DNA of 64,000 bases from assembly GCF_900187985.1 (NCBI RefSeq), contig NZ_FZOA01000001.1, positions 248,001-312,000 on the forward strand. Direction: 5' to 3'. The notes beneath the pieces are model-generated. The model was not told where the DNA came from, did no database searches, and worked only from the letters and a program-made list of their open reading frames with translations. The stretch comes from Methylobacillus rhizosphaerae. GTDB lineage: Bacteria > Pseudomonadota > Gammaproteobacteria > Burkholderiales > Methylophilaceae. Shown one piece after another: positions 2-24,232 of the stretch; the stretch's first letter is position 1, and every line of letters begins with the position of its first letter. The position numbers and the translations under genes are program-made.

Positions 2-1714
2 AGTGGCGCTTTCGACGGTCGCGGCTCTGCTGGAGGTAGTATCAATGTGGTCACCAAGCGCGCCAAGGCAGGTAATTTCACTTCTGGTTCTATCGGTATC
101 GGTACGGATAGCTATCGCCGCGCCACTTTCGATGGCAACTATATGATCGGTGACGATGCTGCCATCCGCTTGGTAGGTGTGGTACACGATGCTGATACTC
201 CAGGCCGCGATGGCGTGGATGTGAAGCGCTGGGGCTTTATGCCGTCGCTGACGATTGGTTTGAACGGCCCGACATCTGCAACTGTAAGCTGGTATCACTT
301 TGAGACTGATGATATGCCTGACCGCGGCCTGATGTACCGTGACAACTCAGGCAATACAAAGAGTCGTCCCATGGGCGTCAGCAAGGATAACTTCTACGGG
401 CTGAAGGATCGTGATTACCACGAAACAACCGCTGATATCGGCACATTTGAATTCAAGCATGCTTTCAGTGACGACGTGACATTGCGCAATACCATGCGTT
501 ATGGCGAAACCAGGAATGAATATGTCGCAACACGCTCCCTGCCTAATGCAGCGAATGTGGCAGCTGATATTGCGCCTCGTAGCGGTCAGGCACGTAAAAC
601 CAAAACCACTTCCCTGATGAACCTGACAGACCTTTCTGTTGCTTTTGAGACAGGCTCCATCAAGCATACAGTGAATACCGGTTTTGAGATCAGCCGTGAA
701 GAAACCGATAGCTATACTGCGACCTGGTTCGGTGATGGTGCAACTGGTCCAGATACCAGTCTCTCGAATCCAAATCCCAATGATCCGTGGAATGGTTATG
801 TCTCATTCAGTAATGCGCCGAATAATACCTGGACCAGTCGCAGCAAGTCTGCCTATGTATTTGACAGCATTGAGTTGAATGACAAATGGCTGGTCAATGC
901 TGGAGTGCGTTACGACCGCTTCGAGGTGGAAAATAATACTGCCAGGTCAGACCATAGTTTCTGGAATTACCAGTTGGGCGCTGTCTACAAGGTGCAGCCA
1001 AATGGCAGCATCTATGCTTCATATGGCACATCAAGTACACCTGTGGGGCTGGGGAATGGTGATGCGAACCATGAGAATGGTAACAACGGGATTGCGGATG
1101 ATTTGAGCCCGGAACGTACCAAGAACTTTGAAGTGGGTACAAAATGGGATGTTCTTGATGGCTTGTCATTGACTGCTGCGGCATTTTATACGCAAAAATC
1201 CAATGCTCGCGTGCTGATGGCAACTGGTGCGTATGCCAATGCTGGTGAGTTTGACGTCAAGGGCATTGAGCTTGGTGCTGCTGGCAAGATTACAGACAAG
1301 TGGGATGTATTTGCGGGCTATACCCATTTAGATAGTGAGCAATCCAAAACTGGCGATGCATTTGGCGGCCATCGTGATCTGGGAGGTGCTGCGAATAAGG
1401 GTAAAGATATGCCGGGCGTAGCAAAAAACAGCGCGAGTGTATGGACTACCTACAAGGTATTGCCACAATTGACGGTCGGCGGTGGTGCATTCTATATGGA
1501 TAAAGTGTATGCCGATCCAGGCAATATGCTTTATGTGCCTTCCTATGTCCGCTGGGATGCCATGGCGAATTACAAAATTGATGATCGCATCAGTTTGCAA
1601 CTTAACTTGCAGAACCTGACAGACAAGCGTTACTTCAACCAGACCTACACGCGCCATTTTGCTACTGTGGCTCCAGGAAGACTGGCATTTGTGTCCTTGA
1701 ATTTCAAGTTCTAG
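2..1714 (+). CDS. TonB-dependent siderophore receptor, 5' end outside window
   Basis: Outer-membrane beta-barrel receptor that imports a ferric siderophore (or similar metal complex) using TonB energy. The frame is open from base 2, which encodes the end of the plug domain (GAFDGRGSAGGSIN, matching the same stretch of the next gene), so the gene is cut by the window edge and is not truncated in nature. The rest is barrel strands, ending in the usual terminal Phe (LNFKF). It is a close paralog of the gene at 2038: the first barrel region (DADTPGRDGVDVKRWGF) is almost identical while the predicted loops (about 300-900) differ. A rho-independent terminator follows. Substrate unknown; iron-catecholate is the best guess from the similarity to the Fiu group. 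Confidence 0.9.
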   Translation, partial: SGAFDGRGSAGGSINVVTKRAKAGNFTSGSIGIGTDSYRRATFDGNYMIGDDAAIRLVGVVHDADTPGRDGVDVKRWGFMPSLTIGLNGPTSATVSWYHFETDDMPDRGLMYRDNSGNTKSRPMGVSKDNFYGLKDRDYHETTADIGTFEFKHAFSDDVTLRNTMRYGETRNEYVATRSLPNAANVAADIAPRSGQARKTKTTSLMNLTDLSVAFETGSIKHTVNTGFEISREETDSYTATWFGDGATGPDTSLSNPNPNDPWNGYVSFSNAPNNTWTSRSKSAYVFDSIELNDKWLVNAGVRYDRFEVENNTARSDHSFWNYQLGAVYKVQPNGSIYASYGTSSTPVGLGNGDANHENGNNGIADDLSPERTKNFEVGTKWDVLDGLSLTAAAFYTQKSNARVLMATGAYANAGEFDVKGIELGAAGKITDKWDVFAGYTHLDSEQSKTGDAFGGHRDLGGAANKGKDMPGVAKNSASVWTTYKVLPQLTVGGGAFYMDKVYADPGNMLYVPSYVRWDAMANYKIDDRISLQLNLQNLTDKRYFNQTYTRHFATVAPGRLAFVSLNFKF

Positions 1715-1983: not shown

Positions 1984-2037
1984 TTTACATTCGCGTTCTT
2001 GGAACTTTGTGAGTTTAAGTAAAGGGGAATGTGCAAA

Positions 2038-4287: not shown

Positions 4288-4971
4288 ATGCTGATTGAAA
4301 TTCCAAAAGTATTGACCAAAGAACAAGTGGCGCAGTGCCGGCAGTTGATGGATGCTGCGGAGTGGGTGGATGGAAATGTGACCTCGGGTAGCCAGTCCGC
4401 CCTGGCAAAAAATAATATGCAGTTGCCTGAGAACTCTGAGGTGGCGCGCCAGGTAGGAGACCTGATCCAGGATGCATTGGGCATGAGCCCGTTGTTTATT
4501 TCTGCAGCGTTGCCGCTCAAAGTGTTCCCTCCCTTGTTCAACCGGTATGAAGGGGGGCAGGCATTTGGTACGCATGTGGATAATGCGATCCGCCAGTTGC
4601 GCGGTACCAATTTCCGCATCCGCAGTGATTTATCGGCCACCCTGTTTTTTTCCGAGCCAGAAGAGTATGACGGTGGTGTGCTGACTATCGAGGATACGTT
4701 CGGCAAACAGGAAGTCAAACTGCCGGCAGGGCATATGGTGCTTTATCCTTCCAGCAGTCTGCATCATGTGACGCCTGTGACGCGAGGCGCACGCGTGTCT
4801 TCGTTCTTCTGGATGCAAAGCATGGTGCGCGATGATGCGCAGCGTACTTTGCTGTTCCAGCTGGATAACAGCATCCAGGCTATTGGAGCAGAGCGGGGTG
4901 GTAAGGACTCAGAAGTGATCCGACTAACTGGGGTATACCATAACCTGCTGCGGATGTGGGCGGACAGCTAG
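4288..4971 (+). CDS. ybiX: Fe(II)/2-oxoglutarate PKHD-type hydroxylase YbiX/PiuC
   Basis: 227 residues, the usual length of the YbiX/PiuC family. These are cytosolic non-haem iron oxygenases found beside catecholate siderophore receptors; the physiological substrate is not established. The iron-binding HxD is visible in GTHVDNAIR, and the distal His and the 2-oxoglutarate Arg in [15 protein letters not shown]. The start codon follows the short purine-rich stretch GGTAAGCGAG. The gene lies 97 bases after the receptor, with a terminator between them. Placement next to Fiu-like receptors supports a role in iron-siderophore use. Confidence 0.9.
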
Positions 4972-7426: not shown

Positions 7427-7561
7427 TACTCGCTTTGGAAGTGAGTAAGAGACAAAGTCTCAACGGTGCTGCAGAACCCCATAATTATAAATGGGAGGTG
7501 GTGTACGTGGGGCTGGGTCTTGATTAAACCCTTAGTAGTATCACTATGGAGATTTATAAAA
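7427..7561 (+). promoter_or_regulatory. Structured 5' leader of xoxF
   Basis: About 135 bases carrying four successive short inverted repeats: TACTCGC/GTGAGTA (7427-7447), GAGAC/GTCTC (7449-7461), CCCAT/ATGGG (7478-7495) and GGGT/ACCC (7515-7531). The first two share bases: AGAC (7450-7453) can pair with upstream GTCT (7424-7427) or with the downstream GTCTC. Alternative folds are therefore possible. Regulatory function is inference. Confidence 0.35.
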
Positions 7562-9439
7562 ATGGAGATGAGCAAAATCAAGCTGGCGCTTGGTGTAGCA
7601 TTCGGTATGTCCTTGGCTCTGCCAATGGTTGCATCTGCTGCTGCTGACCAAGAAGCTGCGATGAAGGATGCAAACAACTGGGTGCACCCACGTGGTCAAC
7701 ATAACAATCAGGGTTACAGCACTCTGAGCCAAATCAACAAGAGCAATGTCAAGAACGTTAAGGCTGCTTGGCAATTCGCTACTGGTGTGAACCGTGGTCA
7801 TGAAGGTTCTCCAGTTGTTGTTGGTAACATGATGTATGTACATACAGCATTCCCTAACAACGTTTACGCTCTTGACCTCAACAACAACCAGAAGATTGTT
7901 TGGGCATATTTCCCTAAGCAAGACCCATCTGTACAAGCTGTTCTGTGCTGCGATAACGTTAGCCGCGGTCTGGGTTATGGCGATGGCAAGATCTTCCTGC
8001 AACAGAACGACGGTACTTTGGTTGCTCTGGATGCGAAGACTGGTGCCAAGGTTTGGGACGTTAAGGTTAACGATCCTAAGGTTGGCGCAACCAACACCAA
8101 CGCTCCTCACGTGATCAAGGACAAAGTCCTGACAGGTTGTTCTGGTGCTGAGTTCGGTGTACGTTGCTTCCTGGCTGCCTACAGCCTGAAGGATGGTGCA
8201 CTGGTATGGAAAGCATACAGCACAGGTCCTGACAGCGAAGTATTGATCGGCGCTGACTTCAACAAGGACAACCCACACTACAGCTCACTGTCTGTTTATG
8301 AAGACGTGAACGGTGGTAACAAAGAAGGCGGTTCCTTCAAGGCTCTGCCTAAGGACAAGCTGAAGTTCCCTGAAAAAGACCTGGGTGTGAAGACATGGTT
8401 GAAGCCACAAGCTGTTAAAGACGGCTGGCAACACGGCGGTGGCTCCACATGGGGTTGGTGGCCATATGACCAGAAGACTAATCTGGTTTACTACGGCACT
8501 GGTAACCCATCTGTTTGGAACCCAGACGTACGTCCAGGTGACAACAAGTGGTCCATGACAATCTTCGCTCGTGATCTGGATACTGGTATCGCCAAGTGGG
8601 GCTACCAAATGACTCCTCACGATGAGTGGGATTATGATGGGATTAACGAAGTGATCTTGTTCGAGAACAAGGGTAAGACCTACGCATGGCACCATGACCG
8701 CAACGGTTTTGCTTATACTTTTGACGCAAGCAATGGTTCTATCATCGCTGCAGAGAAGGTTCATCCATTCGTTAACTGGGCAACTGGTATTGATAAAACT
8801 ACTGGTATTCCTTTGAAGGATGGTAAGTACTCTACTCACCAAGACTACAACGCCAAGGGTATCTGCCCTGCTGCGCTGGGTACCAAGGATCAACAGCCTG
8901 CTGCTTACTCCCCACGTACCGGTCTGGTCTACTCCCCACTTAACCACGTATGTATGACTTACGAGCCAGTTGAGTCCAAGTACATCGCTGGTCAACCATG
9001 GGTTGGTTCTACTCTGACCATGTTTGCTGGTCCTGATGGCGTAATGGGTGGCTTTGCTGCTTATGATCCAATGACCAACAAGAGCAAGTGGTACAACAAG
9101 GAGAAATTCTCTGCTTGGGGTGGTGTACTGGCTACAGCTTCTGACCTAGTGTTCTACGGTACTTTGGATCGTTGGTTCAAGGCTTTGGACGCACAAAGTG
9201 GTAAAGAACTGTGGAAGTTCCAAGTTGGTTCTGGTGTGATTGGTAATGCATTCACATACAGCCACAAGGGTAAGCAATATGTTGGCGTACTGTCCGGTAT
9301 CGGTGGTTGGGCTGGCGTTGCGATGAACCTTGGCCTTGATAACGATACAGATGCACTGGGTGCAGCTGGTGGTTACAAGGAACTGAAAGAGTGGAACGCT
9401 GCTCCTGGCGGCGGTGCACTGAACATATTCAGCCTGTAA
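7562..9439 (+). CDS. xoxF: Lanthanide-dependent methanol dehydrogenase XoxF
   Basis: Periplasmic PQQ enzyme oxidising methanol (and often formaldehyde), 625 residues. A signal peptide ends near MVASAA. The eight-bladed propeller shows the vicinal disulfide C129-C130 (VLCCDN) and metal ligands E197 (SGAEFG) and N315 (GTGNPSVWN). The catalytic Asp is D357, with the extra lanthanide-ligating D359 in DEWDYDG, the mark that separates XoxF from calcium-type MxaF. An insertion of about 30 residues (around 241-280) relative to my recollection of XoxF5 proteins suggests the XoxF4 clade of Methylophilaceae. The start at 7562 is set by GGAG at 7548-7551; reading upstream from 7466 has no stop but no signal peptide logic. 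Codons are strongly biased (AAC, AAG, GGT), as expected for a very highly expressed gene. Confidence 0.97.
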   Translation: MEMSKIKLALGVAFGMSLALPMVASAAADQEAAMKDANNWVHPRGQHNNQGYSTLSQINKSNVKNVKAAWQFATGVNRGHEGSPVVVGNMMYVHTAFPNNVYALDLNNNQKIVWAYFPKQDPSVQAVLCCDNVSRGLGYGDGKIFLQQNDGTLVALDAKTGAKVWDVKVNDPKVGATNTNAPHVIKDKVLTGCSGAEFGVRCFLAAYSLKDGALVWKAYSTGPDSEVLIGADFNKDNPHYSSLSVYEDVNGGNKEGGSFKALPKDKLKFPEKDLGVKTWLKPQAVKDGWQHGGGSTWGWWPYDQKTNLVYYGTGNPSVWNPDVRPGDNKWSMTIFARDLDTGIAKWGYQMTPHDEWDYDGINEVILFENKGKTYAWHHDRNGFAYTFDASNGSIIAAEKVHPFVNWATGIDKTTGIPLKDGKYSTHQDYNAKGICPAALGTKDQQPAAYSPRTGLVYSPLNHVCMTYEPVESKYIAGQPWVGSTLTMFAGPDGVMGGFAAYDPMTNKSKWYNKEKFSAWGGVLATASDLVFYGTLDRWFKALDAQSGKELWKFQVGSGVIGNAFTYSHKGKQYVGVLSGIGGWAGVAMNLGLDNDTDALGAAGGYKELKEWNAAPGGGALNIFSL

Positions 9440-9489
9440 TCGACTGTTAATACGGAAGATGCAAAGCTGACATTAAGTTAGTGCTCTCA

Positions 9490-9519
9490 AGCACCCTGCC
9501 TCAAGGCGGGGTGCTTTTT
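9490..9519 (+). terminator. Rho-independent terminator after xoxF
   Basis: AGCACCC-T-GCC, loop TCAA, GGC-G-GGGTGCT, then five T. It separates the highly expressed xoxF from xoxJ and xoxG. Confidence 0.85.
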
Positions 9520-9523
9520 GTAT

Positions 9524-9554
9524 TTGATAAGTAAATAGTTTGAAGGCTTATCAA
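9524..9554. promoter_or_regulatory. Inverted repeat upstream of xoxJ
   Basis: TTGATAAG (9524-9531) and CTTATCAA (9547-9554) form a perfect 8-base dyad with 15 bases between, centre to centre 23 bases (about two helix turns). It ends just ahead of the xoxJ ribosome binding site AAGGAAG. It could be an operator or a hairpin. Confidence 0.35.
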
Positions 9555-9572
9555 TTTGGAAGGAAGTAGGCA

Positions 9573-10490
9573 ATGTTGAAAACACTGAAAAAGGTTTCAC
9601 TAGTGCTAACGCTGGTGGGTATCAGCCAGCTGGCTGTTGCAGAAACTGCGACCAATACCTTAGAGGTTGATAGTGAGATAGGCCGTGGCGGTTTGCCGGT
9701 ACGTGAAGACAACCCCAATGAATTAAAAGTCTGTGCAGATTTTGATAACTTGCCTTATTCCAATGGCAAGCAAGAAGGATTTGAGAACAAAATTGCCGAG
9801 TTGATTGCCAAGGATCTTGGCAAAACCCTGTCCTACCAGTTCTGGTATGACCGTATGGGGTTCATCAGAAATACATTGAATGCACGTCGTTGTGACGTGA
9901 TTATTGGCACCGTTTCAGGTTATGACATGATGCTGACTTCCAAGCCTTATTACCGCTCTGGTTATGTATTTGTCTATCGCAAGGATAGCGGATATGACAT
10001 TAAGGACTGGGATTCCCCGGATTTGCGTAAAGGTATTATTGGTGTGATTGGGCAGGCACCTCCATCACGTCCATTGAGTGACAAGGGCTTGCTGGGTAAC
10101 TCCCGCCCTTATCGGATGCAGCGCGACCTGAATTTATCGCCAGGTTTCGTGATTGATGATCTGGTCAAAGGTGACATTGATGTTGCTATTCTGTGGGGGC
10201 CGATTGCAGGCTATTACGCCAAGAAAGCACCGATTCCACTAGTAGTCGTGCCTGCACCGGAGTATGAGCAGGAAAATGTACATGGCAAGGAATATTGGAA
10301 TATTTCAGTGGGTGTACGCAAGCGCGACAAAGAGCGTATGGCAATGCTGCAAGAGGTGCTGGATCGACGTCATGATGACATCATAAAAATTCTTGATGAG
10401 TACGGTATTCCTCATGTGCCGGTTGTTCCCGATGATAATATCGAGAAAAAATCCAAAAACAGGGGTGATGCAATTCCCAAATTTGAATAG
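9573..10490 (+). CDS. xoxJ: XoxJ/MxaJ-like periplasmic solute-binding protein
   Basis: 305 residues with a signal peptide ending near QLAVA-ET. The mature part is a two-lobed periplasmic binding fold of the MxaJ/XoxJ family (starting NELKVCADFDNLPYSN; DRMGFIRNTLNARRCDVIIG). XoxJ is needed with XoxF and is thought to help activate or mature it, although the exact role is unsettled. AAGGAAG lies 6 bases before the ATG. It sits between xoxF and xoxG, in the usual order for Methylophilaceae. A terminator precedes it, so it is read by read-through from xoxF or by its own promoter. Confidence 0.92.
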   Translation: MLKTLKKVSLVLTLVGISQLAVAETATNTLEVDSEIGRGGLPVREDNPNELKVCADFDNLPYSNGKQEGFENKIAELIAKDLGKTLSYQFWYDRMGFIRNTLNARRCDVIIGTVSGYDMMLTSKPYYRSGYVFVYRKDSGYDIKDWDSPDLRKGIIGVIGQAPPSRPLSDKGLLGNSRPYRMQRDLNLSPGFVIDDLVKGDIDVAILWGPIAGYYAKKAPIPLVVVPAPEYEQENVHGKEYWNISVGVRKRDKERMAMLQEVLDRRHDDIIKILDEYGIPHVPVVPDDNIEKKSKNRGDAIPKFE

Positions 10491-10503
10491 TAATTTTCAT
10501 GTT

Positions 10504-10532
10504 ACGAGTCAACGGTTCTATTGTTGACTCGT
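10504..10532 (+). repeat. Ten-base-pair stem-loop between xoxJ and xoxG
   Basis: ACGAGTCAAC (10504-10513), 9-base loop, GTTGACTCGT (10523-10532), perfect. No T-tract follows, so it is not a standard terminator. Possible RNA processing or stabilising element, or a protein-binding dyad. Confidence 0.5.
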
Positions 10533-10609
10533 TAACGGAAGTACAGACTGACAAGTTTGTAAAAACGCAGTCGAAGTTTAAGTGGTTATATATAAAGCAA
10601 GGAGAAAGT

Positions 10610-11140
10610 ATGTTGAATCATGGAGTGTTCAAAGCAACCCTGGCAGCTTCTGTGTTGGCTTTGGCTGGCCTGGCAATGCCAATACAGGCAAATGCAGCCT
10701 GTAATCTGGTTTCTACCAAGGACAATAGTCCGTTAAACATCAAGGTTGCAGATGACGATACCCCGGAAGCCAAGCAGTTCCTGGAAACTTGTGTAAATCC
10801 GTATACCAAGATTTACGCTGCAGATCCGGAAAAGGCTAAAGCTGGTAAGAAGAAGTTTGGTCTGTATTCCTGCACTACCTGCCACGGCCCTAATGGCGAT
10901 GGTCAAGTAGCGGTGCCTATTACCGATGATCGCTGGCAATATGCTAAGCACATCACTGACAAGGGTATGTTTGAAACCATTGCTGGTGGTTCCAATGGCG
11001 GTATGGCCACTTGGCACAAACAAGTCGCTGGTAATCCAGATCTGGTTTCTACTGATGAAATCCTGAAGATTATCGGTTTCCTGCGCAGCCAGTACAAGGG
11101 TGGTGGCGACAAGCCATGGTTGGATGAAAAGCCACAATAA
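10610..11140 (+). CDS. xoxG: XoxG, cytochrome c electron acceptor of XoxF
   Basis: 176-residue periplasmic monohaem cytochrome c (cL type), which takes electrons from XoxF. A signal peptide ends near IQANA-AC; the haem-binding CTTCH is present, and a Met in SNGGMATWH is the likely sixth ligand. The start at 10610 is chosen because AAGGAG lies 5-6 bases upstream and a signal peptide follows directly; an in-frame ATG at 10499 would put a non-secretory stretch ahead and cross the stem-loop. A terminator follows, closing the xox group. Confidence 0.94.
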   Translation: MLNHGVFKATLAASVLALAGLAMPIQANAACNLVSTKDNSPLNIKVADDDTPEAKQFLETCVNPYTKIYAADPEKAKAGKKKFGLYSCTTCHGPNGDGQVAVPITDDRWQYAKHITDKGMFETIAGGSNGGMATWHKQVAGNPDLVSTDEILKIIGFLRSQYKGGGDKPWLDEKPQ

Positions 11141-16032: not shown

Positions 16033-17505
16033 TTACAATGAGTGGTGTTTGCGGGGCAGTGTGATCTCAATGACAGTACCGCCTGCAGCTGCATTGGTGA
16101 AATGAATATCCCCGGAAAGAACCTCCATGACTTTGAACGCAAACGGGATGCCAAGGCCGGTACCAAAGCGTTTGGTCGTAGGGCCTGGGCTGATCGCATG
16201 CGGGTCTGGTGTGAATGGCATGCCGGCTCCCTGGTCACTGATACTGATGCGCAGGCTGGCATGATTGACAATATCACAACGGATGGCAATTTTTCCTGCC
16301 AGGGGTGAAGCTTCGACAGCATTGAGCAATAGATTATAGATTGCTTGCTCTAGCAGGCTTTCATCAGTGAACAACTGATCATTGACTGCTTCCCAGTCTG
16401 GAAACAATATCATGAGCTGCTTTTCATGAATTTTCTGTTGTAGGGGCGTCAGTGCTCCATGTAATACCTGGCGTACGGTAGTGAGGCTGGCATGTGGTTT
16501 CAGCGGGTGCAGGTATGCCAGCAATGCCCGCGTCCAGCGATCAAGGCGATCCACAGTACTGATGATAGCGGCGAGGGATTCGCGGGTTTCCCTATCCAGG
16601 TGGTTGCCATCCACGACCTGGGCAGTCGCGCGGATGCTGGCCAGGGGGTTGCGGATATTATGTGCCAGCATAGGGGCCAGTAGACCAAGTGCCGCCTGTT
16701 TTTCCGAGCGCACAAGTGCTTCCTGGCTGCGGCGTAGTTCATGTGCCATGGTGTTGATGGCATGTGAAAGTGTGGCAAGCTCGGCTACACCTTCTTCTGG
16801 AACAGTATGGGAAAGATTGCCGGCACTGATTTCCGTGGAGGCATGCAATACGTTGCGGATAGGTCGCACAATAGCGCGCTTCAGGAATATGTGCGAGAAC
16901 AGCAGCAGCAGCAGTGCCAGGCCAACCGGGATCAACATGAGCGTGAAAGTGGTGTGTTTGACATCGCGCAGGCGTGAGGACAATTCCTGATGTTTCAGGA
17001 ACAATAGTCCCTCGGTACGGGCAGAGATGATTTCATAGCGATGGAAAATGCTGGATTCCAGGTGGGTATTCAGCGCTTTTTCCAGCTCTGCACGGCTATA
17101 GTCATTTGCCAGTGCAAAGATATGTTCTGTTTCACGCAGTAAATCCTGATAGCTGTCATGCAACTCTGTAATGGCAGCTTTTTCCTGGTCATCAACCGTC
17201 AGCGCCAGCATTTTGCGGAAATGCACGCCGATGGAGCGGGTGTAAACGTTGTATTCTTCTTGTGCCTGGGGATCTTTCAGGAAGTGCAGGTCAAACAGTT
17301 CTTTCATCTGGCGATACAGGTCACCGCGCGTCTGTTGAATCTCCTGAACCATCAGGTGAATACGCTGTGACTCCTGAGAGGATTGATCCCATATCCGTAT
17401 GCCAATGACGCCTGCGGCTCCTGCCAGAATAACCAGCAGGAAAAAGGCCAGCTCATGCACCAGCAGCATATCCTTGAGTGATTTGATCTGTTGAGGCTGG
17501 CTCAT
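16033..17505 (-). CDS. Membrane sensor histidine kinase, orphan
   Basis: 490 residues: transmembrane helix 17-37, periplasmic helical sensor of about 145 residues, second helix 187-207, HAMP linker, dimerisation domain with phospho-acceptor H282 (LAHNIRNPL), and a HATPase domain (N box NLLLNAVEAS, G1 DQGAGMPF, G2 GTGLGIP). The H box reads HNIRNPL instead of the common HEIRNPL. It overlaps the tonB stop by 4 bases (ATGA), so it is translationally coupled to tonB. No response regulator gene is adjacent; the signal is unknown. Confidence 0.9.
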   Translation of the reverse strand: MSQPQQIKSLKDMLLVHELAFFLLVILAGAAGVIGIRIWDQSSQESQRIHLMVQEIQQTRGDLYRQMKELFDLHFLKDPQAQEEYNVYTRSIGVHFRKMLALTVDDQEKAAITELHDSYQDLLRETEHIFALANDYSRAELEKALNTHLESSIFHRYEIISARTEGLLFLKHQELSSRLRDVKHTTFTLMLIPVGLALLLLLFSHIFLKRAIVRPIRNVLHASTEISAGNLSHTVPEEGVAELATLSHAINTMAHELRRSQEALVRSEKQAALGLLAPMLAHNIRNPLASIRATAQVVDGNHLDRETRESLAAIISTVDRLDRWTRALLAYLHPLKPHASLTTVRQVLHGALTPLQQKIHEKQLMILFPDWEAVNDQLFTDESLLEQAIYNLLLNAVEASPLAGKIAIRCDIVNHASLRISISDQGAGMPFTPDPHAISPGPTTKRFGTGLGIPFAFKVMEVLSGDIHFTNAAAGGTVIEITLPRKHHSL

Positions 17506-18332
17506 GGCGCTTCCAGCGTGAAAGGAACTGGCACGAGAATGACCAGATGCTTGTTATTACGCAATATCTCGGGCGGCTGGGGCAGGGGCGAGGCTTTGTT
17601 TACCATGGTCATGGCCTGTTCATCTAGTACCTTGTGGCCACTGGATTGTTTTACCTGGATAGACATGACCTGCCCTTGTTCATCGCAATGTACCTCCAGG
17701 ATGACTTCACCTGTCCAGCCGCGCATCTGGGCGATCTTGGGATATTGCTTGTATTTCGCAATGGCACGTGACAACAGGCCACTGTAGCGGTTGCGTGCTG
17801 CATCAATGTCCTCCTGGCTAGGTCCGGTATTGGCTGGCGGAGGTTCGGGTGCCGGTGTATGTACAGGCGCCACTGGGGCCGGGATGGGTGTTGTTACCGG
17901 CGCAGTGGTTGTCATGACTTCTGGTGTCGCTACTTCTTCTGAAGGCACTGCTTCAGGTACCGGTGCGGGCTCTTGTGTCTGCGGGGGGCTGGGAGCTGGA
18001 GGCTCAGGTGTTTTCGGCGCTGGCTTGGGTTTAGGGGGCAGTGGTTTTTTAGGTATAGGGGGTGGTTCCGGTGTATGTGGCGGCTCTGGTTCTGCCGGTT
18101 TGACGGGTTCCGGCGCAGGTATGGCGACATTGGCTTGTACTGGACTGGGCTGCGGAGCCAATGCCACTTGCAGCGTAAGTGGCTCTTGTTGCGCTTCCGG
18201 TGTGAAGTCGAACCTGGGAAACTGCAACATGAGTACGAGATGCAATGCCAATGACGCCAGAACAGGCCAATAGAGACTGTGGTTGTTGGCTGACAGTAAT
18301 ATGGGGCGAGCAACGGCAGTCAAGATATACAA
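17502..18332 (-). CDS. tonB: TonB energy transducer
   Basis: 276 residues: membrane anchor at about 21-37, a long Pro-rich periplasmic span (about 55-175, PEPP/PKPKP repeats), and a TonB C-terminal domain (KYKQYPKIAQMRGWTGEVILEV). It carries proton-motive energy from an ExbBD complex to outer-membrane receptors; exbBD is not in the window. The start is uncertain: TTG at 18332 gives the full anchor but has no clear binding site. Downstream it is coupled to a sensor kinase. Plausible clients in this window are the receptors at 2, 2038 and 22109. Confidence 0.88.
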   Translation of the reverse strand: MYILTAVARPILLSANNHSLYWPVLASLALHLVLMLQFPRFDFTPEAQQEPLTLQVALAPQPSPVQANVAIPAPEPVKPAEPEPPHTPEPPPIPKKPLPPKPKPAPKTPEPPAPSPPQTQEPAPVPEAVPSEEVATPEVMTTTAPVTTPIPAPVAPVHTPAPEPPPANTGPSQEDIDAARNRYSGLLSRAIAKYKQYPKIAQMRGWTGEVILEVHCDEQGQVMSIQVKQSSGHKVLDEQAMTMVNKASPLPQPPEILRNNKHLVILVPVPFTLEAP

Positions 18333-18402: not shown

Positions 18403-19335
18403 TTATTCCCACTCCAGTACTGGGTAGATCAGATTGATATTGCGGCGGTTGACGGCGTTAAACAATTGCCAGTGAGACGCTTCGCTGGCAGCAGCACTAT
18501 CCATCGCTTGTTCCATGGTTTTTCCTGCCTTGATGGCGCTACGGACATCATTCAACAATACGGAAAGATATCGCTCCTCGTGGTTCAGGGCGGCTTTCAG
18601 GTCTTGAGAGACAGGGCCATGCCCGGGTACCACATGTTGAATGTCCGATAGCTGCTGCAGTTGATGAATGGCGGATAGCCAGCCCTTGATATCTCCATCA
18701 ATGGAAGGAGTACGTTCAATGAACAGCAGGTCTCCTGTCCACAAAGTGCCAGTTTTCTCATCCAGGACGGTGAGGTCAGTATTGGTGTGGGCATTGGGGA
18801 AGGCTGTCAACAGCAGCTTTCTATCTCCCAGGTCCAGCTCCTTGCGGTCTGCCACCAACACGGATGGCTGGATGACTTCACTGCCGGAAAACTTATCACC
18901 CAGTAAATCATGTCCCTGTTTCAGGTAGGCATCTTTACGCAATGTCATGGAGCTTGCAAGTTTCGCATGCCCGATAAAAACAGGATGTTCCTGTGCGAAT
19001 GCGGCATTACCGAAAATATGGTCAGGGTGGATATGGGTGTTGATGACATAAAGCACAGGCAGTGCAGTCAGTGTGCGAAGGGAGGCTAACAGCGCCTGCC
19101 CTGTGGCTTTGCTGCCGCCGGTATCAATAACAGCCACTCCCTTGCTGCCGATAATAAAGCCAATATTGCTGATATCCCCTTGATAACCGTCATCAAGGTC
19201 CTCATGCGCACCTTGATGCATATATACGCCATTGGCGACTTCCTGCATTGTCAGTGGCTGGGTCATGCCCGTTACGGGCAGTAGCAGGAGCAGGCAAGAC
19301 AGATAGAAGGCGCATTTGATGGATAGGCTGGTCAT
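18403..19335 (-). CDS. MBL-fold zinc hydrolase, SoxH-like (quinoprotein relay type)
   Basis: 310 residues with a signal peptide (residues 1 to about 25), so periplasmic. It has the metallo-beta-lactamase fold with zinc ligands H101, H103, D105, H106 (THIHPDHIFGN), H183, D202 and H239 (PGHG). It resembles the SoxH-related 'quinoprotein relay system zinc metallohydrolase' families, which occur with PQQ dehydrogenases and fused SoxYZ-like carriers; one such carrier is encoded at 21182. It is divergent from the beta-propeller gene. The substrate is unknown; hydrolysis of a thioester or similar bond on the carrier is a guess. Confidence 0.82.
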   Translation of the reverse strand: MTSLSIKCAFYLSCLLLLLPVTGMTQPLTMQEVANGVYMHQGAHEDLDDGYQGDISNIGFIIGSKGVAVIDTGGSKATGQALLASLRTLTALPVLYVINTHIHPDHIFGNAAFAQEHPVFIGHAKLASSMTLRKDAYLKQGHDLLGDKFSGSEVIQPSVLVADRKELDLGDRKLLLTAFPNAHTNTDLTVLDEKTGTLWTGDLLFIERTPSIDGDIKGWLSAIHQLQQLSDIQHVVPGHGPVSQDLKAALNHEERYLSVLLNDVRSAIKAGKTMEQAMDSAAASEASHWQLFNAVNRRNINLIYPVLEWE

Positions 19336-19478
19336 GATCAGTTAATTTCATCGTGGAAGCTGCATGTTAAATGCCTATATACAACTCTGTAAATACAAGA
19401 TTGAACTTGAGAAGTATTGTGGCGTCTGAAACAATGTAGTTACAAGATAAAAATTCGAAACACTATTGGAGAATGTAT

Positions 19479-20432
19479 ATGCAATGCAAATTTGAGTTAA
19501 AGCTCATTGCGGCTTCAGCGGCAATGATGTTTTCCGGCGCTTTGTTCGCAGCCCCTTTTGCTTATTCCACGAATGAGAAGTCAGGGACGATTTCCGTCAT
19601 AGACACACAGACCGATACGGTCGTGAATACGTTTGATGCTGGTAAGAAGCCACGTGGCGCTGCCATTACCAAGGATGGAAAATATATTTTTGTCAGCGAC
19701 CAGAAGCAGAATTCTCTGCTGGTGATTGATCTTGCCAAGAAAACCGTGACTGACAAGATCAAGCTGGAAGAGTCTCCAGAAGGGGTGGGTATTTCCCATG
19801 ATGGCAGATGGATTTCCGCAGCGAACGAGGAAGATAACACGGTGGCCGTTATTGATACCCAGACACATAAAGTCAGCTACATTGTGAACGTACAAGGCAA
19901 AAATCCGGAACATGCGGAATTCAGCCCTGATGGCAAGTGGATGTATGTCAGCGCGGAAGAAGCGAAATATGTGGATGTCGTCGATGTAGCCAAGCGCGCC
20001 TCCATCAAGCTGGTGGAAGTGGGTGAGCGTCCACGTGGTATCGGCTTCCTGCCTGACAGTTCACGTGCCTATGTCGCCAATGAAGCTGCTGGTACCGTGT
20101 CGGTTTTTGACACCAGTAAGCATGAAGTCATTGCGACCATCCCGGTAGGACAGCGTTCCAACGGAGTACAAGTGCTGCCTGACGGAAAAAAAGTGTATAT
20201 CTCTAACGGTGGTGACGGCAGCTTGTCCGTGATTGATACCGCGACCAACAAAGTGACGACGACTATTCCTGTAGGCAAGCGTCCCTGGAATATGTCTGTT
20301 ACTCCAGATGGCAAGAAGCTCTACGTCGCCAATGGTAAATCCAACTCTGTGACGGTGATCGATACCGAGCATGATAAGGCGTTGAAGGAAATCCCTGTCG
20401 GTGATACACCATGGGGTGTGTTTGTCCACTAA
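19479..20432 (+). CDS. Secreted YVTN beta-propeller protein (PQQ-associated)
   Basis: 317 residues with a signal peptide ending near GALFA-AP. The rest is about seven repeats of 40-43 residues with the pattern G-x-(I/V)-SVIDT ... V-x-x-IPVG-x-(R/K)P-x-x-(M/I)-x-x-(T/P)DGK-x-(V/L)Y(V/I)(A/S)N. This matches the propeller family found with PQQ-dependent catabolic dehydrogenases. ATG at 19479 is chosen, since GGAG (19468-19471) is 7 bases ahead; ATG at 19473 is too close. The cytochrome b561 gene follows 71 bases downstream. Function unknown. Confidence 0.85.
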   Translation: MQCKFELKLIAASAAMMFSGALFAAPFAYSTNEKSGTISVIDTQTDTVVNTFDAGKKPRGAAITKDGKYIFVSDQKQNSLLVIDLAKKTVTDKIKLEESPEGVGISHDGRWISAANEEDNTVAVIDTQTHKVSYIVNVQGKNPEHAEFSPDGKWMYVSAEEAKYVDVVDVAKRASIKLVEVGERPRGIGFLPDSSRAYVANEAAGTVSVFDTSKHEVIATIPVGQRSNGVQVLPDGKKVYISNGGDGSLSVIDTATNKVTTTIPVGKRPWNMSVTPDGKKLYVANGKSNSVTVIDTEHDKALKEIPVGDTPWGVFVH

Positions 20433-20503
20433 ATGCAATTGAATGAGTGGACCGGCTATCCTGCGCAGGTGGGATAGCCAGCGCTGCCTGAGCTGGGATG
20501 ATC

Positions 20504-21103
20504 ATGAATCACACTGTTAGATACACCAAAGTAGCTGTCATACTGCATTGGTTGATTGCGCTTGGCATTCTTTTTCTGCTTGCACTGGGCTGGTATATGA
20601 ATGAACTGCCCAAAGGCGGGGACAAGTTGGCAAGCGTTGATTTGTTCGACCTGGGGTTGTATACCCTGCAATTGACCGAGGCGGTGTCACTGCGTACCTT
20701 CTATTTCAACCTGCACAAGTCCATTGGCTTGACGATCCTGTTTCTGATTGCTGTGCGTTTGTACTGGCGCTTGTTGCATAAGGCCCCGGAACTTTCTGAC
20801 TCCCTGAAGCGCTGGGAGAAAGTGCTGGCACATGGTACGCATCACCTGTTGTACTTGATGATGCTTGTCATGCCTGTCACGGGTTTGTTGACGACGCTTT
20901 ATAGCAAATACGGATTGCACTGGTTTTCTATACCGGTATTGCCTGGCCTGGATAATCCGGGGTTACGCGATTTTTTCGTGGTGGCCCATGAGTTCTCGGC
21001 AATTGTACTGGCAACTTTGGTTGGGCTGCATATTGCGGCTGCCTTGAAGCACCAGTTTATGGACCGGGATAACATCATGAAGCGGATGTCGTTATTTGAT
21101 TAA
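20504..21103 (+). CDS. Cytochrome b561-type membrane protein
   Basis: 199 residues, four transmembrane helices, with haem-ligand candidates in HWLIAL, NLHKSIG, HHLLYL and GLHIAAALKHQF. Such proteins pass electrons between the periplasm and membrane quinone. The start is ATG at 20504 or 20498; GGGA upstream suits 20504 better. It probably forms an operon with the propeller gene, suggesting that electrons from a periplasmic quinoprotein-linked reaction enter the membrane here. A strong terminator follows. Confidence 0.87.
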   Translation: MNHTVRYTKVAVILHWLIALGILFLLALGWYMNELPKGGDKLASVDLFDLGLYTLQLTEAVSLRTFYFNLHKSIGLTILFLIAVRLYWRLLHKAPELSDSLKRWEKVLAHGTHHLLYLMMLVMPVTGLLTTLYSKYGLHWFSIPVLPGLDNPGLRDFFVVAHEFSAIVLATLVGLHIAAALKHQFMDRDNIMKRMSLFD

Positions 21104-21138
21104 CCAATGAAAATGGTGAGTGCACATCAGTGACAGAT

Positions 21139-21170
21139 AAAAAAGCCCAGCAGATTCTGCTGGGCTTTTT
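21139..21170. terminator. Bidirectional terminator between cytochrome b561 and SoxYZ-like genes
   Basis: A-rich arm plus AGCCCAGCAG, loop ATT, CTGCTGGGCT and T5. It serves both convergent genes. Confidence 0.9.
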
Positions 21171-21181
21171 GTTGAGGGTGT

Positions 21182-21982
21182 TTACTGCACGGACAGCGAG
21201 TGCGAGAACTGGCCTTCTTCCGTATCTGTTGCATGAACTTCCAGGACGCCAGCTTCTGGAGGGATAAAGTTGAAACGCAGGTAAGGGTCTTCGCTGGTGC
21301 CGACGCCAAAATCTGCTATCAGCACAGGTCTGCCATTATAGGTGAAACGGGCCTGATTGATGTAGAACGCTGGTCGAAAGCCTTGTGAGACCAGATCACG
21401 CTGCAGGCCGGTGAACATGGGATGTTTGATGTTGAAAGTCGTCACAGTGGGATGATTGAATGACACTGGCGTTTCCACATTGAGCTTGATCTTGCCGGCA
21501 TCGGCCAACAGGATTGTTTCATCTTCTCCTAGCGTGCCGCCACAGCCACCAGAGGCGCGAATGGTGATGGCTGTCATGTAAAGTCTGCCATCGGCAGTTT
21601 CACCAATGGCATGGATGTAAGAATCAGTTTCCAGCCGGATGCGCGTGGAAAGCTCCAGCGTGCCGAGCAATTCTGACAGGTGATAAGTGGCGGCCAGTGG
21701 AATGGGGTTGGCATCGACGATGATGTAGACGGACTTGATGGCATCCGGCGCAGATTGCGGCCTGTCAATTGTCAACGTAATAGGCACTTGGGCACCGCTT
21801 TCAGCGCGCCTGGGGCCTGATAGCTTGATGAAATCGGCCTCTTCAATCTGGCGCTTTGGGAAAAAGCCTTCCTTGAGCGCAGGCCAGAGCGTGGCTGAGG
21901 CTTCGGCATAGGCCGGGTGACTACTGCCAAGTGTCAGCATAGCCAGCATGCCTGATATAACGATGTAATGATGCATCCGCAT
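21182..21982 (-). CDS. Fused SoxYZ-like carrier, quinoprotein-associated
   Basis: 266-residue periplasmic protein (signal peptide ending near PAYA-EA). The first half (to about 149) is SoxY-like and ends in RASGGCGG, with C147 in the position of the SoxY swinging-arm cysteine that carries covalent intermediates. The second half is SoxZ-like (KHPMFTGLQRD ... FNFIPPEAGVLEVHATDTEEG). This matches the 'quinoprotein dehydrogenase-associated SoxYZ-like carrier' family. GGAGGA lies 8 bases before the ATG at 21982. No soxA, X, B or CD is nearby, so ordinary thiosulfate oxidation is not implied. Cargo unknown. Confidence 0.87.
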   Translation of the reverse strand: MRMHHYIVISGMLAMLTLGSSHPAYAEASATLWPALKEGFFPKRQIEEADFIKLSGPRRAESGAQVPITLTIDRPQSAPDAIKSVYIIVDANPIPLAATYHLSELLGTLELSTRIRLETDSYIHAIGETADGRLYMTAITIRASGGCGGTLGEDETILLADAGKIKLNVETPVSFNHPTVTTFNIKHPMFTGLQRDLVSQGFRPAFYINQARFTYNGRPVLIADFGVGTSEDPYLRFNFIPPEAGVLEVHATDTEEGQFSHSLSVQ

Positions 21983-22028
21983 GTGTGTTCTCCTCCATAG
22001 CCCGATAATTATTATTTTTCTCCTAGCA

Positions 22029-22078
22029 TACAATAAAACAAAGGGGATGCTGTGTAGTATTCGCTACACAGCATCCCC
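22029..22078 (-). terminator. Strong terminator after the PqqU-like receptor gene
   Basis: Perfect 15-base stem (22043-22057 with 22064-22078), 6-base loop. On the minus strand it is followed by the T-rich TTTGTTTTATT. It separates the receptor gene from the SoxYZ-like gene. Confidence 0.85.
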
Positions 22079-22108
22079 CAGGGATTTGAAGTTGATGATG
22101 CGACGAGG

Positions 22109-24232
22109 TTACTGGAACATATAGGTCGCGTTCAGGCCAAGTAGCCAGTTGCGGCCTGCGGCAGGTTCGTAGAAGCGACTATTACCATCGTTGACACGGA
22201 CGGAGCCGATATAGTCTTTGTCAAAGATGTTCTCGACGCGTACAAACTCGCTGAAGCGCCAGTTTTGCAATTTTTGTTGCAGGCCGGCACGAATATTGAA
22301 AATAGTGTACGAACCTGCTGTCTCGCTATTGGTGTCGTTGACATACACTTTGCTGTTATGACGTGCCTCAAATGCTGTGCTGAAACCACTGGCCTGGTGT
22401 TTCCAGGCAATTTCGCCATAAATCTGGGTTTTGTAAGTACCGGGGATGTAGTCGCCGGACTTGATGGTATTACCCAGTGCATTGGTATAGTCGGAATCAA
22501 ACTTTGCATTCAGCAGAGTATAGGAGCCGAACAATGAAATATTGTTGGCAAACCTGGACTCAATGGAAAGTTCTGCACCATGGCGTTTTGTTTTTCCCGC
22601 ATTGGTATAGGAAGAGCGTCCGCTCAATGTATCGCTGACGACAATCTCATCATCGGTCAGGGATTTGAACAGAGTCAGGTTGGCTGAAGTATTGTCCCCA
22701 AGAATGGCTTTGGTGCCGATTTCGAAGTTACGGCTCTCACTGGGTTTCAATGACAGATTGGGAGTGCTGTTGGCTGCCGTGGAGGCATAGGCAGCCTCAA
22801 TAAAGGTGGGTGTCTCAAAACCTTTACCGTAGTTGGCATAGAAATTCAGGGTGGGTGTTGCTTTCCATACTGCACCAATAACAGGGGTGGTCTTCTCATA
22901 AGTGACACGGCCACTGTTGTCGCCATTGGAATTGGCACCGCTGGTGAAGTTGTCATCTACTTCCAGTGTTACCTTGGTGCGGCGTGCGCCCACATGCAGA
23001 TCCAGGTTATCCAGCAATGCCCACTGTGCTTGGATATACTGGTCAGAGTTGGTGGCAATGTTTTCCTCATCACGGTTAAGTGCGCCGGTTTTTACGCCAT
23101 TGACTGCGGCGATATCTGTGCGGCCATCATTCATTTTGCCGTAAGTCAGCCCTGCGCTCAGTGAGTACGGGCGGCTTAACAATTCTCCAGTATGTGTCCA
23201 GCGCAGATCCGTACCCCAGAATTCACGGTCGATCAGGCTGGCACGGCCATTGCCATTCACCGGGCTGATGGATAAGTATTGTTCATTCTTGCGGTTGCCT
23301 ACATAGGAAATCAGGTTGATCGTGTTGTTTTCATTGACCTTGTGCTCAAGGTTGAAGCCAACCTGCGTCTGGCTGCGAGATACCCTGGTGTCGGCTCTAT
23401 AGGCGCTGGCGGTAGCCTGTTTGCGGTCTGCGCGCACTTCAGCACGAGTCAGGCCCAATGGGTCATTGGCTTCCTGGTCAAACCAGTTGATAAGGGTGGT
23501 GAGTTTGGTATCTTCATTCAGGTTGAAGCGGAACTTGGCTGTACCTTGTTCTTTCTTGTTGCTGCTGTGGTCGCGATAACCATCTGAAGAGTAGTTGCTG
23601 TAGTTGATCATGTATTCAAGGCCATCCGCAGTGCCTGCTGCACGGACATTCTCACGGCGGGTGCCATAACTGCCAAACAGCACACCGGCAGAGAGTTCAT
23701 GACCTTGCGGTGCATTTTCAGTCAGTAATTGAATAACGCCGCCGGAAGAGTTGCCGTACAGGGCTGAGAACGGCCCACGCATGACTTCAATGCCTTGGAG
23801 CGTACCAAGGTCTACATTGCCAGGTTGACCGCTGCCATCAGGGTAAGTCAAGGGAATACCATCAACATACAGGCGAACGCCGCGTACACCGAATGAGGAA
23901 CGTGCGCCAAAGCCGCGCGTGGAGATCTGGGGGTCCTGTGACATTTGTGTGCGGTTCTGCGCGGTGATGCCTGGGACGCGGATCAGGCTTTCCGACAACG
24001 TCATCTGTGCTTGGCCATCTTGGATGTTTTCCTTGCTGACGACATCAATGGCAACAGGCAGGTCGAAGCTTGTTTGTGCTGCACGGGTTGCCGTTACCAC
24101 GATGGGGGAGACAACTTGGGCGCCCGCTTGGTTTTCGCTCGTGGCACTGACTTCTTCTGCCAGCGCGTTATTACCCCAAATACCCAATACAGCCAATGGA
24201 ATGAGTTTGAGATGAAATCTGGAATGGCGCAT
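22109..24232 (-). CDS. TonB-dependent receptor, YncD/PqqU-like (candidate PQQ importer)
   Basis: 707-residue outer-membrane receptor with a signal peptide ending at NALA-EE, a TonB-box region (SPIVVTATR), a plug and a barrel. It shares long recognisable stretches with E. coli YncD (PqqU), the PQQ uptake receptor: RGFG(A/S)RS-x-(F/Y)G-(V/I)-RG, RLYVDGIP, RGPFSALYGN-x-SGGV, GYRDHS, TDDEIVV, YKNAGKT/YTNAGKT, and near the C terminus GSV-x-VN-x-x-x-x-R-(F/Y)-YEP-x-x-GRN. GGGGAG precedes the ATG by 5 bases. It is followed by a strong terminator and then the SoxYZ-like carrier. The location among PQQ-linked genes supports PQQ as substrate, but this is inference by homology. Confidence 0.88.
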   Translation of the reverse strand: MRHSRFHLKLIPLAVLGIWGNNALAEEVSATSENQAGAQVVSPIVVTATRAAQTSFDLPVAIDVVSKENIQDGQAQMTLSESLIRVPGITAQNRTQMSQDPQISTRGFGARSSFGVRGVRLYVDGIPLTYPDGSGQPGNVDLGTLQGIEVMRGPFSALYGNSSGGVIQLLTENAPQGHELSAGVLFGSYGTRRENVRAAGTADGLEYMINYSNYSSDGYRDHSSNKKEQGTAKFRFNLNEDTKLTTLINWFDQEANDPLGLTRAEVRADRKQATASAYRADTRVSRSQTQVGFNLEHKVNENNTINLISYVGNRKNEQYLSISPVNGNGRASLIDREFWGTDLRWTHTGELLSRPYSLSAGLTYGKMNDGRTDIAAVNGVKTGALNRDEENIATNSDQYIQAQWALLDNLDLHVGARRTKVTLEVDDNFTSGANSNGDNSGRVTYEKTTPVIGAVWKATPTLNFYANYGKGFETPTFIEAAYASTAANSTPNLSLKPSESRNFEIGTKAILGDNTSANLTLFKSLTDDEIVVSDTLSGRSSYTNAGKTKRHGAELSIESRFANNISLFGSYTLLNAKFDSDYTNALGNTIKSGDYIPGTYKTQIYGEIAWKHQASGFSTAFEARHNSKVYVNDTNSETAGSYTIFNIRAGLQQKLQNWRFSEFVRVENIFDKDYIGSVRVNDGNSRFYEPAAGRNWLLGLNATYMFQ

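What the first reader, a model, noticed from the sequence alone, without database searches (positions are those of the whole stretch)
18403..24232. Uncharacterised quinoprotein-linked cluster: MBL hydrolase, beta-propeller, cytochrome b561, SoxYZ-like carrier and a PqqU-like receptor
Five envelope genes that are individually typed as quinoprotein-associated or PQQ-associated lie together, 7 kb from xoxFJG. Seen: periplasmic signals, full zinc ligands, C147 in GGCGG, haem histidines. Family knowledge: the SoxYZ-like, SoxH-like and propeller families co-occur with PQQ dehydrogenases. Inference: a periplasmic relay in which the carrier cysteine holds a product or sulfur species, the MBL enzyme releases it, and electrons go to cytochrome b561. 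No soxA, X, B or CD is near, so this is not standard sulfur oxidation. No experimentally defined pathway is known to me.
Basis: partly seen in the sequence, partly recalled or inferred. Interest (0 to 1): 0.82.

Follow-up and report, generated by a model that had tools for sequence, protein, structure and literature searches.

The report
Methanol-enzyme-linked sulfur-carrier gene locus
Near the rare-earth methanol-oxidising enzyme of this bacterium lie genes for a one-cysteine carrier protein and a metal-dependent hydrolase of unknown job; in some other bacteria the same two genes form one unit with a sulfide-oxidising enzyme, which suggests that the carrier holds sulfur and makes an old guess testable.

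Summary
The five genes are real. Two pass NCBIfam cut-offs for quinoprotein-linked families: the metallohydrolase (TIGR04559) and the fused SoxYZ-like carrier (TIGR04557). Propeller and receptor fall below theirs, but the receptor has the published three-residue PqqU signature. In 14 of 22 Methylophilaceae genera the hydrolase lies with xox genes; the divergent hydrolase/b561 pair is kept in 20 of 21; the propeller is there in 2 of 22. The carrier matches in 137 of 140 genomes; SoxB passes its cut-off in 1 of 140. In 240 class-level genomes, 26 of 27 with a fused carrier have a PQQ alcohol dehydrogenase, against 16 of 213 others. New clue: carrier, hydrolase and flavocytochrome c sulfide dehydrogenase (FCSD) genes form one unit in a Methylophilaceae genome, two Advenella and one Glaciimonas, and this genome has a second carrier beside FCSD. 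I favour a sulfur carrier unloaded by the hydrolase (SoxB's role), guarding the quinoprotein. This is unproven; the dehydrogenase association and the guard idea are in print. A streamlined genus keeps carrier and b561 but lacks the hydrolase, and FCSD-linked carriers are a clade of their own, so neither one obligatory five-gene relay nor a sulfur load at the window is shown.

The parts
18403..19335 (-). MBL-fold metallohydrolase, 'quinoprotein relay system zinc metallohydrolase 2' family (SoxH-like)
   Evidence: TIGR04559 403.7 bits, cut-off 280; seven metal ligands invariant in 55 of 55 rows; AlphaFold pLDDT 95.4; nearest folds 8d2z and 6uxu, Z 32.4 and 31.7
19473..20432 (+). YVTN-repeat beta-propeller, YncE-like; lineage-restricted at this place
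   Evidence: TIGR02276 repeats 251.6 bits; TIGR03866 235.6 below cut-off 287.3; YncE NF052280 99.1 below 400; at this place in 2 of 22 genera
20498..21103 (+). cytochrome b561, membrane dihaem protein; divergent partner of the MBL gene
   Evidence: PF01292 110.6 bits; five invariant histidines in 44 of 44; only solved relative 5oc0, 49 bits
21182..21982 (-). fused SoxYZ-like carrier with C147 in GGCGG on a tethered arm
   Evidence: TIGR04557 228.9 bits, cut-off 140; arm cysteine in all 80 distinct carriers, the only cysteine of the mature part in all but one; model pLDDT 92.5, arm blocks 70-77; SoxY and SoxZ folds rank first
22109..24232 (-). TonB-dependent receptor with PqqU signature
   Evidence: E. 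coli YncD/PqqU 6v81 475.7 and 9c4o 475.1 bits; F99, R304, R365 (E. coli numbers) kept; NF041535 594.1 below cut-off 1200
17502..18332 (-). TonB-family protein, 70 bp from the MBL gene on the same strand
   Evidence: TIGR01352 68.7 bits; recurs beside the MBL gene in the xox-type loci of many genera
7466..11140 (+). xoxF, xoxJ, xoxG: XoxF-type methanol dehydrogenase, periplasmic partner, cytochrome c
   Evidence: reading frames; TIGR03075 match 623 bits joined, over cut-off; xoxF has adjacent cysteines and the WDYD motif (the lanthanide reading of that motif is recalled)

Best explanation
The locus is the Methylophilaceae form of the known quinoprotein-associated SoxYZ/SoxH module. The fused carrier is an exported protein with one cysteine on a tethered, mobile arm. 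Most likely it takes up reactive sulfur (sulfide- or polysulfide-derived sulfur, thiosulfate or sulfite) on C147. The metallohydrolase then frees the end product by hydrolysis, the job that SoxB does in the standard pathway; no SoxB was found here. Electrons leave through a partner suited to the place: flavocytochrome c in the paralogous units, by inference cytochrome c or b561 at the xox locus. At the xox locus the use would be to keep sulfur nucleophiles off the PQQ of XoxF, while the PqqU-type receptor recovers PQQ. Shown: gene identity, arm cysteine, metal ligands, folds (predicted), association with PQQ dehydrogenases, units with sulfide dehydrogenase. Inferred: the sulfur load, the hydrolysis step, the electron path, the guarding role.
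For: Carrier, MBL, cytochrome and FCSD flavoprotein genes lie in this order on one strand in L201 (G070, Methylophilaceae), L220 and L221 (Advenella) and L218 (Glaciimonas); flavoproteins pass FCSD_central and FCSD-flav_bind, MBLs and carriers pass TIGR04559 and TIGR04557. This genome's second carrier has FCSD beside it (L104). SoxB over cut-off in 1 of 140 Methylophilaceae genomes, so another hydrolase is needed if the carrier is unloaded that way. One cysteine per carrier; SoxY and SoxZ folds. 26 of 27 genomes with a fused carrier have a PQQ alcohol dehydrogenase. PMC11237559 (passages) says that SoxH could compensate for missing SoxB in Sulfurimonas CVO and suggests protection of methanol dehydrogenase from thiosulfate.
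Against: FCSD-linked carriers form their own clade and FCSD-unit MBLs branch apart, weakly supported, so xox-linked members may hold another load. FCSD lies within 2 kb of a listed carrier in only 5 of 140 genomes, although 99 of 140 have an FCSD. I saw no sulfur enzyme beside the xox-locus copy. Thirteen genomes of genus g12 keep a carrier without the MBL. [quoted passage not shown] PMC12997753 reports minimal transposon phenotypes (without rare earths). The MBL fold does not name a substrate. b561 is no general partner outside Methylophilaceae.
Confidence: 0.45

Rival explanations
1. The carrier holds a carbon product: formaldehyde made by XoxF adds to C147, is oxidised to a formyl thioester, and the MBL, working like glyoxalase II, releases formate.
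For: XoxF oxidises methanol (family knowledge) and the module tracks PQQ alcohol dehydrogenases; the MBL has the complete binuclear ligand set typical of glyoxalase II (resemblance recalled; GSH_gloB match 35.9 bits, far below cut-off); the xox-linked carriers sit with no sulfur enzyme that I saw; PMC11237559 leans to a role in carbon metabolism.
Against: The same carrier and MBL families form a unit with sulfide dehydrogenase; carriers keep the SoxY arm and fold.
Confidence: 0.2
2. The module matures or redox-tunes the dehydrogenase, for example its adjacent-cysteine disulfide or its cofactor site.
For: Proposed in PMC12997753 section 15; the window's XoxF has adjacent cysteines.
Against: 79 of 80 distinct carriers have a single cysteine in the mature part, so the carrier is no dithiol oxidase by itself; 16 of 42 class-level genomes with a PQQ alcohol dehydrogenase have no fused carrier; units with FCSD.
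Confidence: 0.12
3. The locus is chiefly a PQQ recovery locus: PqqU-type receptor, tonB and propeller are the working unit, and carrier, MBL and b561 are neighbours with separate tasks.
For: PqqU signature in 15 of 15 full-length receptors of this kind; tonB beside the MBL in many genera; E. coli yncD and yncE are neighbours (recalled).
Against: The genome has pqqC, 347.1 bits, so it likely makes PQQ; receptor and propeller vary between genera while carrier, MBL and b561 persist; carrier and MBL adjoin PQQ dehydrogenases elsewhere with no such receptor recognised beside them.
Confidence: 0.12
4. Inherited neighbourhood only: the genes stay together because the region is stable, and share no pathway.
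For: The region also keeps unrelated genes (phoH, bcp, moeA-mobB-mobA-moaA); g12 dissociates MBL from carrier and b561; MBL and carrier are apart in several genera.
Against: MBL and carrier adjoin one another and PQQ dehydrogenases in unrelated families and FCSD in others; MBL/b561 stay together where the rest is gone.
Confidence: 0.1

Closest known systems
Quinoprotein-associated SoxYZ-like carrier and SoxH-like hydrolase (TIGR04557 with TIGR04558/TIGR04559); P. [quoted passage not shown]
   Same: Same two families, beside or near a PQQ alcohol dehydrogenase or xoxF; arm cysteine and hydrolase ligands
   Different: Here about 7 kb from xoxFJG, with b561, tonB and a PqqU-type receptor; SoxB nearly absent from the family; paralogues with sulfide dehydrogenase
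Canonical Sox system (SoxYZ, SoxB, SoxAX, SoxCD)
   Same: SoxY and SoxZ folds and the GGCGG arm
   Different: SoxY and SoxZ fused, so the arm is tethered at both ends; no SoxB found; SoxAX and SoxCD not searched for
Flavocytochrome c sulfide dehydrogenase (FccAB/SoxEF)
   Same: Paralogous carrier in this genome and carrier plus MBL in four other genomes lie beside it
   Different: Not present at the window locus
PqqU (YncD) of E. coli
   Same: Closest solved relative over nearly the full length; Y/F99, R304, R365 signature kept
   Different: K274, Q310 and N477 replaced by V, L and I; below the NCBIfam cut-off; host has pqqC

Membership tests
TIGR04557 quinoprotein dehydrogenase-associated SoxYZ-like carrier | score over curated cut-off | tested here: met
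   228.9 bits, cut-off 140
TIGR04557 quinoprotein dehydrogenase-associated SoxYZ-like carrier | arm cysteine | tested here: met
   C147 in GGCGG; cysteine in all 80 distinct carriers
TIGR04557 quinoprotein dehydrogenase-associated SoxYZ-like carrier | genomes encode PQQ alcohol dehydrogenase | tested here: met
   26 of 27 at class level, the 27th with fragments only
TIGR04559 quinoprotein relay system zinc metallohydrolase 2 | score over curated cut-off | tested here: met
   403.7 bits, cut-off 280
TIGR04559 quinoprotein relay system zinc metallohydrolase 2 | full metal-ligand set | tested here: met
   seven ligands invariant in 55 of 55 rows
TIGR04559 quinoprotein relay system zinc metallohydrolase 2 | hydrolase activity | not testable with these tools
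   needs purified protein
TIGR03866 PQQ-dependent catabolism-associated beta-propeller | score over curated cut-off | tested here: not met
   235.6 bits, cut-off 287.3
PqqU | score over NCBIfam NF041535 cut-off | tested here: not met
   594.1 bits, cut-off 1200
PqqU | published signature Y/F/W99, R304, R365 (PMC12124388, passages) | tested here: met
   F, R, R by the alignment; two other TonB receptors of the window lack it
PqqU | PQQ binding and import | not testable with these tools
   needs binding or growth assay
Canonical Sox thiosulfate oxidation | SoxB present | tested here: not met
   no match in the genome
Canonical Sox thiosulfate oxidation | SoxAX and SoxCD present | not tested
   no search made
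Canonical Sox thiosulfate oxidation | SoxY and SoxZ as separate subunits | tested here: not met
   one reading frame holds both domains
Carrier-MBL-FCSD unit | carrier, MBL and FCSD genes adjacent on one strand | tested here: not met
   met in L201, L218, L220, L221, not at the window locus; the genome's second carrier has FCSD but no MBL beside it (L104)

The most novel reading that the evidence does not exclude
A minimal SoxB-less sulfur pathway: a fused one-cysteine carrier, an MBL-fold hydrolase in SoxB's place and flavocytochrome c form a four-gene periplasmic unit, and the same carrier and hydrolase serve beside lanthanide methanol dehydrogenase as a sulfur guard, with b561 as the local electron outlet in Methylophilaceae.
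Probability: 0.25. Interest if true: 0.75.

Novelty: new variant of a known kind. Interest (0 to 1): 0.5.

Why it matters
The 'quinoprotein relay' families carry names without a function, yet 137 of 140 Methylophilaceae genomes examined, streamlined ones included, match the carrier family. The units with sulfide dehydrogenase give a concrete cargo to test and organisms to test it in. If right, it would explain why methanol oxidisers keep orphan Sox parts and how sulfur compounds and PQQ enzymes are kept apart.

Tried and rejected
Five genes as one obligatory pathway: rejected, because propeller, receptor, MBL and carrier come and go separately. b561 as a general partner of the MBL: not seen in 35 regions from other families; the only b561 match there was a weak one (29% identity) several genes away in L177. 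Neighbour enrichment by Pfam over 100 flanking proteins from those regions gave small counts only (best: Cytochrome_CBB3 4, SBP_bac_3 4, ABC_tran 3, rhodanese 2). Fold comparison of the MBL gave 8d2z, chlorothalonil dehalogenase, B1 lactamases and alkylsulfatases; it does not decide the substrate. PMC7391723 was searched for sox, propeller and three locus numbers without a hit.

In print or not: paper searches listed no paper whose title, abstract start or passages seen by me described the carrier-MBL-FCSD unit; one search listed 15 of 63 papers, 20 of 352, 12 of 248, and I read passages of a few only, so absence is not shown.

Counts with parts left out: carrier hits 152, full length 134, distinct 80; 60 rows went into the model alignment, 64 of 81 into the tree. 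MBL: 74 distinct, 55 rows aligned, 56 in the tree. One search gave 78 of 80 single-cysteine carriers because it mistook one signal-peptide GGC for the arm; one search corrects this to all but one. One search printed a wrong column for receptor residue 308; one search corrects it.
Full report
What is there. Spacing suggests three transcription units: receptor then carrier on the minus strand (126 bp apart), propeller then b561 on the plus strand (65 bp), MBL then tonB on the minus strand (70 bp), with MBL and propeller diverging across 137 bp. The genus is most likely Methylobacillus (Methylophilaceae): a contig of G010, which one search puts in the same genus as the window's genome, has the length (839744) and place of Methylobacillus arboreus. 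This is inference from matching contig lengths.

Typing. NCBIfam: MBL passes TIGR04559 (403.7, cut-off 280); carrier passes TIGR04557 (228.9, 140); propeller fails TIGR03866 (235.6, 287.3); receptor fails PqqU NF041535 (594.1, 1200). b561 matches Pfam PF01292 and lies below the cut-off of NCBIfam cytochrome b561 (49.9 of 170); its one solved relative is 5oc0 (49 bits), recalled as a superoxide oxidase. The receptor's closest solved chains are E. coli YncD/PqqU 6v81 and 9c4o, 475 bits. Passages of PMC12124388 use Y/F/W99, R304 and R365 as the signature of PqqU. The window's receptor has F, R and R, and also Q84, Q308, Y481 and R536, but V, L and I for K274, Q310 and N477 (read from the alignment). 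Among receptors picked for similarity to it (over 200 bits, at least 550 aa) 15 of 15 full-length ones, the window's included, have the signature; a truncated one shows the two residues it covers; R536 is kept in only 7 of the 15; two other TonB receptors of the window lack the signature.

Locus conservation. Forty regions covering 22 Methylophilaceae genera, the window's among them, were laid out. The order xoxF-J-G, ndh, a transporter, phoH, bcp, a histidine kinase (not always), tonB, MBL, b561, carrier, receptor, moeA-mobB-mobA-moaA recurs. The MBL lies with xox genes in 14 of 22 genera (in one the xoxF place comes; in one only xoxG and ndh are on the contig); in 6 it lies elsewhere; in g8 the contig ends about 1 kb past it; g12 has none. 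MBL and b561 are divergent neighbours in 20 of the 21 genera with an MBL, the propeller standing between them in 2 (g1, g15). The carrier is next to b561 in 13 of 22. In two congeners of the window (L064, L095) the carrier is missing from this spot.

Distribution. In 140 Methylophilaceae genomes: carrier family in 137, 117 over cut-off; MBL in 125, 122 over cut-off; PQQ alcohol dehydrogenase in 139, 115 over cut-off; SoxB over cut-off in 1, with weak matches in 5 more. The 15 genomes without an MBL match are all 13 of g12 (1.1-1.4 Mb) and two less complete ones (G087, G133). All 13 of g12 keep a diverged carrier match, under the cut-off in the 12 rows listed; the three I read have the arm cysteine (L079, L098, L099). 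b561 is found in 12 of 13 at 49-59% identity. In two g14 loci (L082, L213) a gene of 135-136 aa stands before MBL and b561; in three g12 loci a gene of 141-142 aa stands directly beside b561 within the same flank, and the one tested is DoxX, so the MBL seems to have been lost from that spot.

Class level, 240 genomes (260 asked for): 39 have a carrier match over cut-off; 12 of these are read with stop codons inside and look like separate soxY and soxZ joined by the tool, leaving 27 fused carriers (this sorting is mine). PQQ alcohol dehydrogenase is over cut-off in 42: 26 of the 27, the 27th (G193) having two fragments only, and 16 of the other 213. Fisher p is 9e-23 by genome, and 7e-16 by family label (20 of 21 against 12 of 133, counted by hand, 154 being the highest label seen); relatedness is not fully removed. 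TIGR04559 is over cut-off in 22, all within the 27. In 35 regions from these genomes carrier, MBL and xoxF-like genes are often direct neighbours; b561 is not.

The sulfur clue. This genome has a second fused carrier on another contig with a c-type cytochrome and a flavoprotein behind it (L104); the flavoprotein passes Pfam FCSD_central (149 bits) and FCSD-flav_bind (82.7), that is flavocytochrome c sulfide dehydrogenase. The small cytochrome subunits are recognised by a CxxCH motif, mutual similarity and place, hardly or not at all by Pfam. By the listed rows, FCSD lies within 2 kb of a carrier in 5 of 140 genomes (G000, G010, G040, G050, G070), while 99 of 140 have an FCSD somewhere. In G070 the order is carrier, MBL, cytochrome, flavoprotein on one strand with gaps or overlaps of at most 10 bp (L201). 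A scan of named genomes with FCSD-clade carriers gave 21 loci. The same four genes in the same order are in Advenella incenata (L220) and Advenella kashmirensis W13003 (L221), the first three overlapping and the flavoprotein 91 and 98 bp on, and in Glaciimonas sp. KJS.1 (L218), with a 399 bp gap before the cytochrome. That is four genomes in three families (G070's family). Their MBLs and carriers pass the family cut-offs. Against this, several FCSD-type carrier loci have a cytochrome only (L215) or neither recognised gene (L214, L219, L230) beside them, and the rest of the 21 are xox-type or Rhodobacteraceae loci. Six carriers, five with FCSD and one (L209) with a cytochrome only, form one clade (SH-aLRT 99, quick tree without bootstrap). 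The FCSD-unit MBLs branch outside the other TIGR04559 rows with weak support (83).

Carrier and hydrolase anatomy. All 80 distinct full-length carriers have the arm cysteine, and it is the only cysteine of the mature part in all but one (L166). The model is confident (pLDDT 92.5) except around the signal peptide end and the arm, a loop tying the SoxY to the SoxZ domain; SoxY and SoxZ of Paracoccus rank first in the fold search. So the arm is held at both ends, unlike the free C-terminus of SoxY. The MBL model is confident (pLDDT 95.4); nearest are 8d2z (Z 32.4, rmsd 2.2, 273 aligned) and chlorothalonil dehalogenase 6uxu (Z 31.7, rmsd 2.4, 276 aligned), then B1 lactamases (about 218 aligned) and alkylsulfatases (267-274 aligned) near Z 25. 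This supports a hydrolase fold and does not name the substrate.

The propeller. It is below the TIGR03866 cut-off and restricted at this place, but YVTN propellers adjoin carriers in other PQQ clusters: L091 and L207 in Methylophilaceae, L182, and three Rhodobacteraceae loci where propeller and carrier overlap or abut beside xoxJ and xoxF. Those tested are also below that cut-off.

Literature. PMC12997753 (section 15 and passages) describes carrier, SoxH-like hydrolase and a rhodanese as conserved with PQQ dehydrogenases, reports minimal transposon phenotypes without rare earths, and proposes maturation, or protection of PQQ from sulfur nucleophiles. PMC11237559 (passages; [quoted passage not shown] The soxB objection does not hold for Methylophilaceae. 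PMC11582611 (passages; [quoted passage not shown] PMC6548844 (passages) reports two soxYZ fusions in Methylophaga thiooxydans and cites thiosulfate oxidation by an Advenella kashmirensis XoxF; I did not see that work. PMC5934484 (passages) shows soxH near xoxF5. PMC12172469 (passages) lists a soxYZ fusion among highly transcribed genes of lucinid symbionts. PMC4611497 (passages) gave only FCSD abundance in dimethylsulfide enrichments.

Judgement. I commit to a sulfur carrier with an MBL-fold hydrolase in SoxB's role at 0.45. The carbon-adduct rival stays alive, because xox-linked carriers are a separate clade and sit with no sulfur enzyme that I saw.

Noticed in passing
L221 11125-14538; L220 11132-14517: Behind the Advenella carrier-MBL-FCSD unit lie an FAD oxidoreductase-like protein and substrate-binding proteins; the one tested (L221 13432-14538) has OpuAC and NMT1 domains, perhaps for uptake of an organic sulfur or nitrogen compound.
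   Followed up: partly
window 16033-17505: A histidine kinase stands between bcp and tonB in many xox-type loci, with no response regulator recognised beside it; it may report on this locus.
   Followed up: no
window 47-1714, 2029-4191, 4288-4971: Two related TonB siderophore-type receptors in tandem, followed by a PiuC-like hydroxylase frame (name recalled), upstream of xoxF; possible metal or lanthanophore uptake.
   Followed up: no
G000 C14:53704-53982 (L003): A third SoxY-type protein of about 143-147 aa without the GGCGG arm, beside a peptidase-like protein (by eye).
   Followed up: no
L210, L211, L212 (g12) and L082, L213 (g14): A small DoxX-type membrane protein (tested in L212) neighbours b561 or MBL/b561 in the streamlined genera; DoxX is linked to thiol redox systems elsewhere (recalled).
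   Followed up: partly
L204, L205, L201 (G070): One genome carries a b561/MBL pair, a carrier near aspS, and the carrier-MBL-FCSD unit at three places, a good strain to separate their roles.
   Followed up: partly
L091, L106, L207: A second type of PQQ dehydrogenase cluster in Methylophilaceae (xoxF-like 38-48% identity) with two YVTN propellers and its own fused carrier (L091, L207).
   Followed up: no
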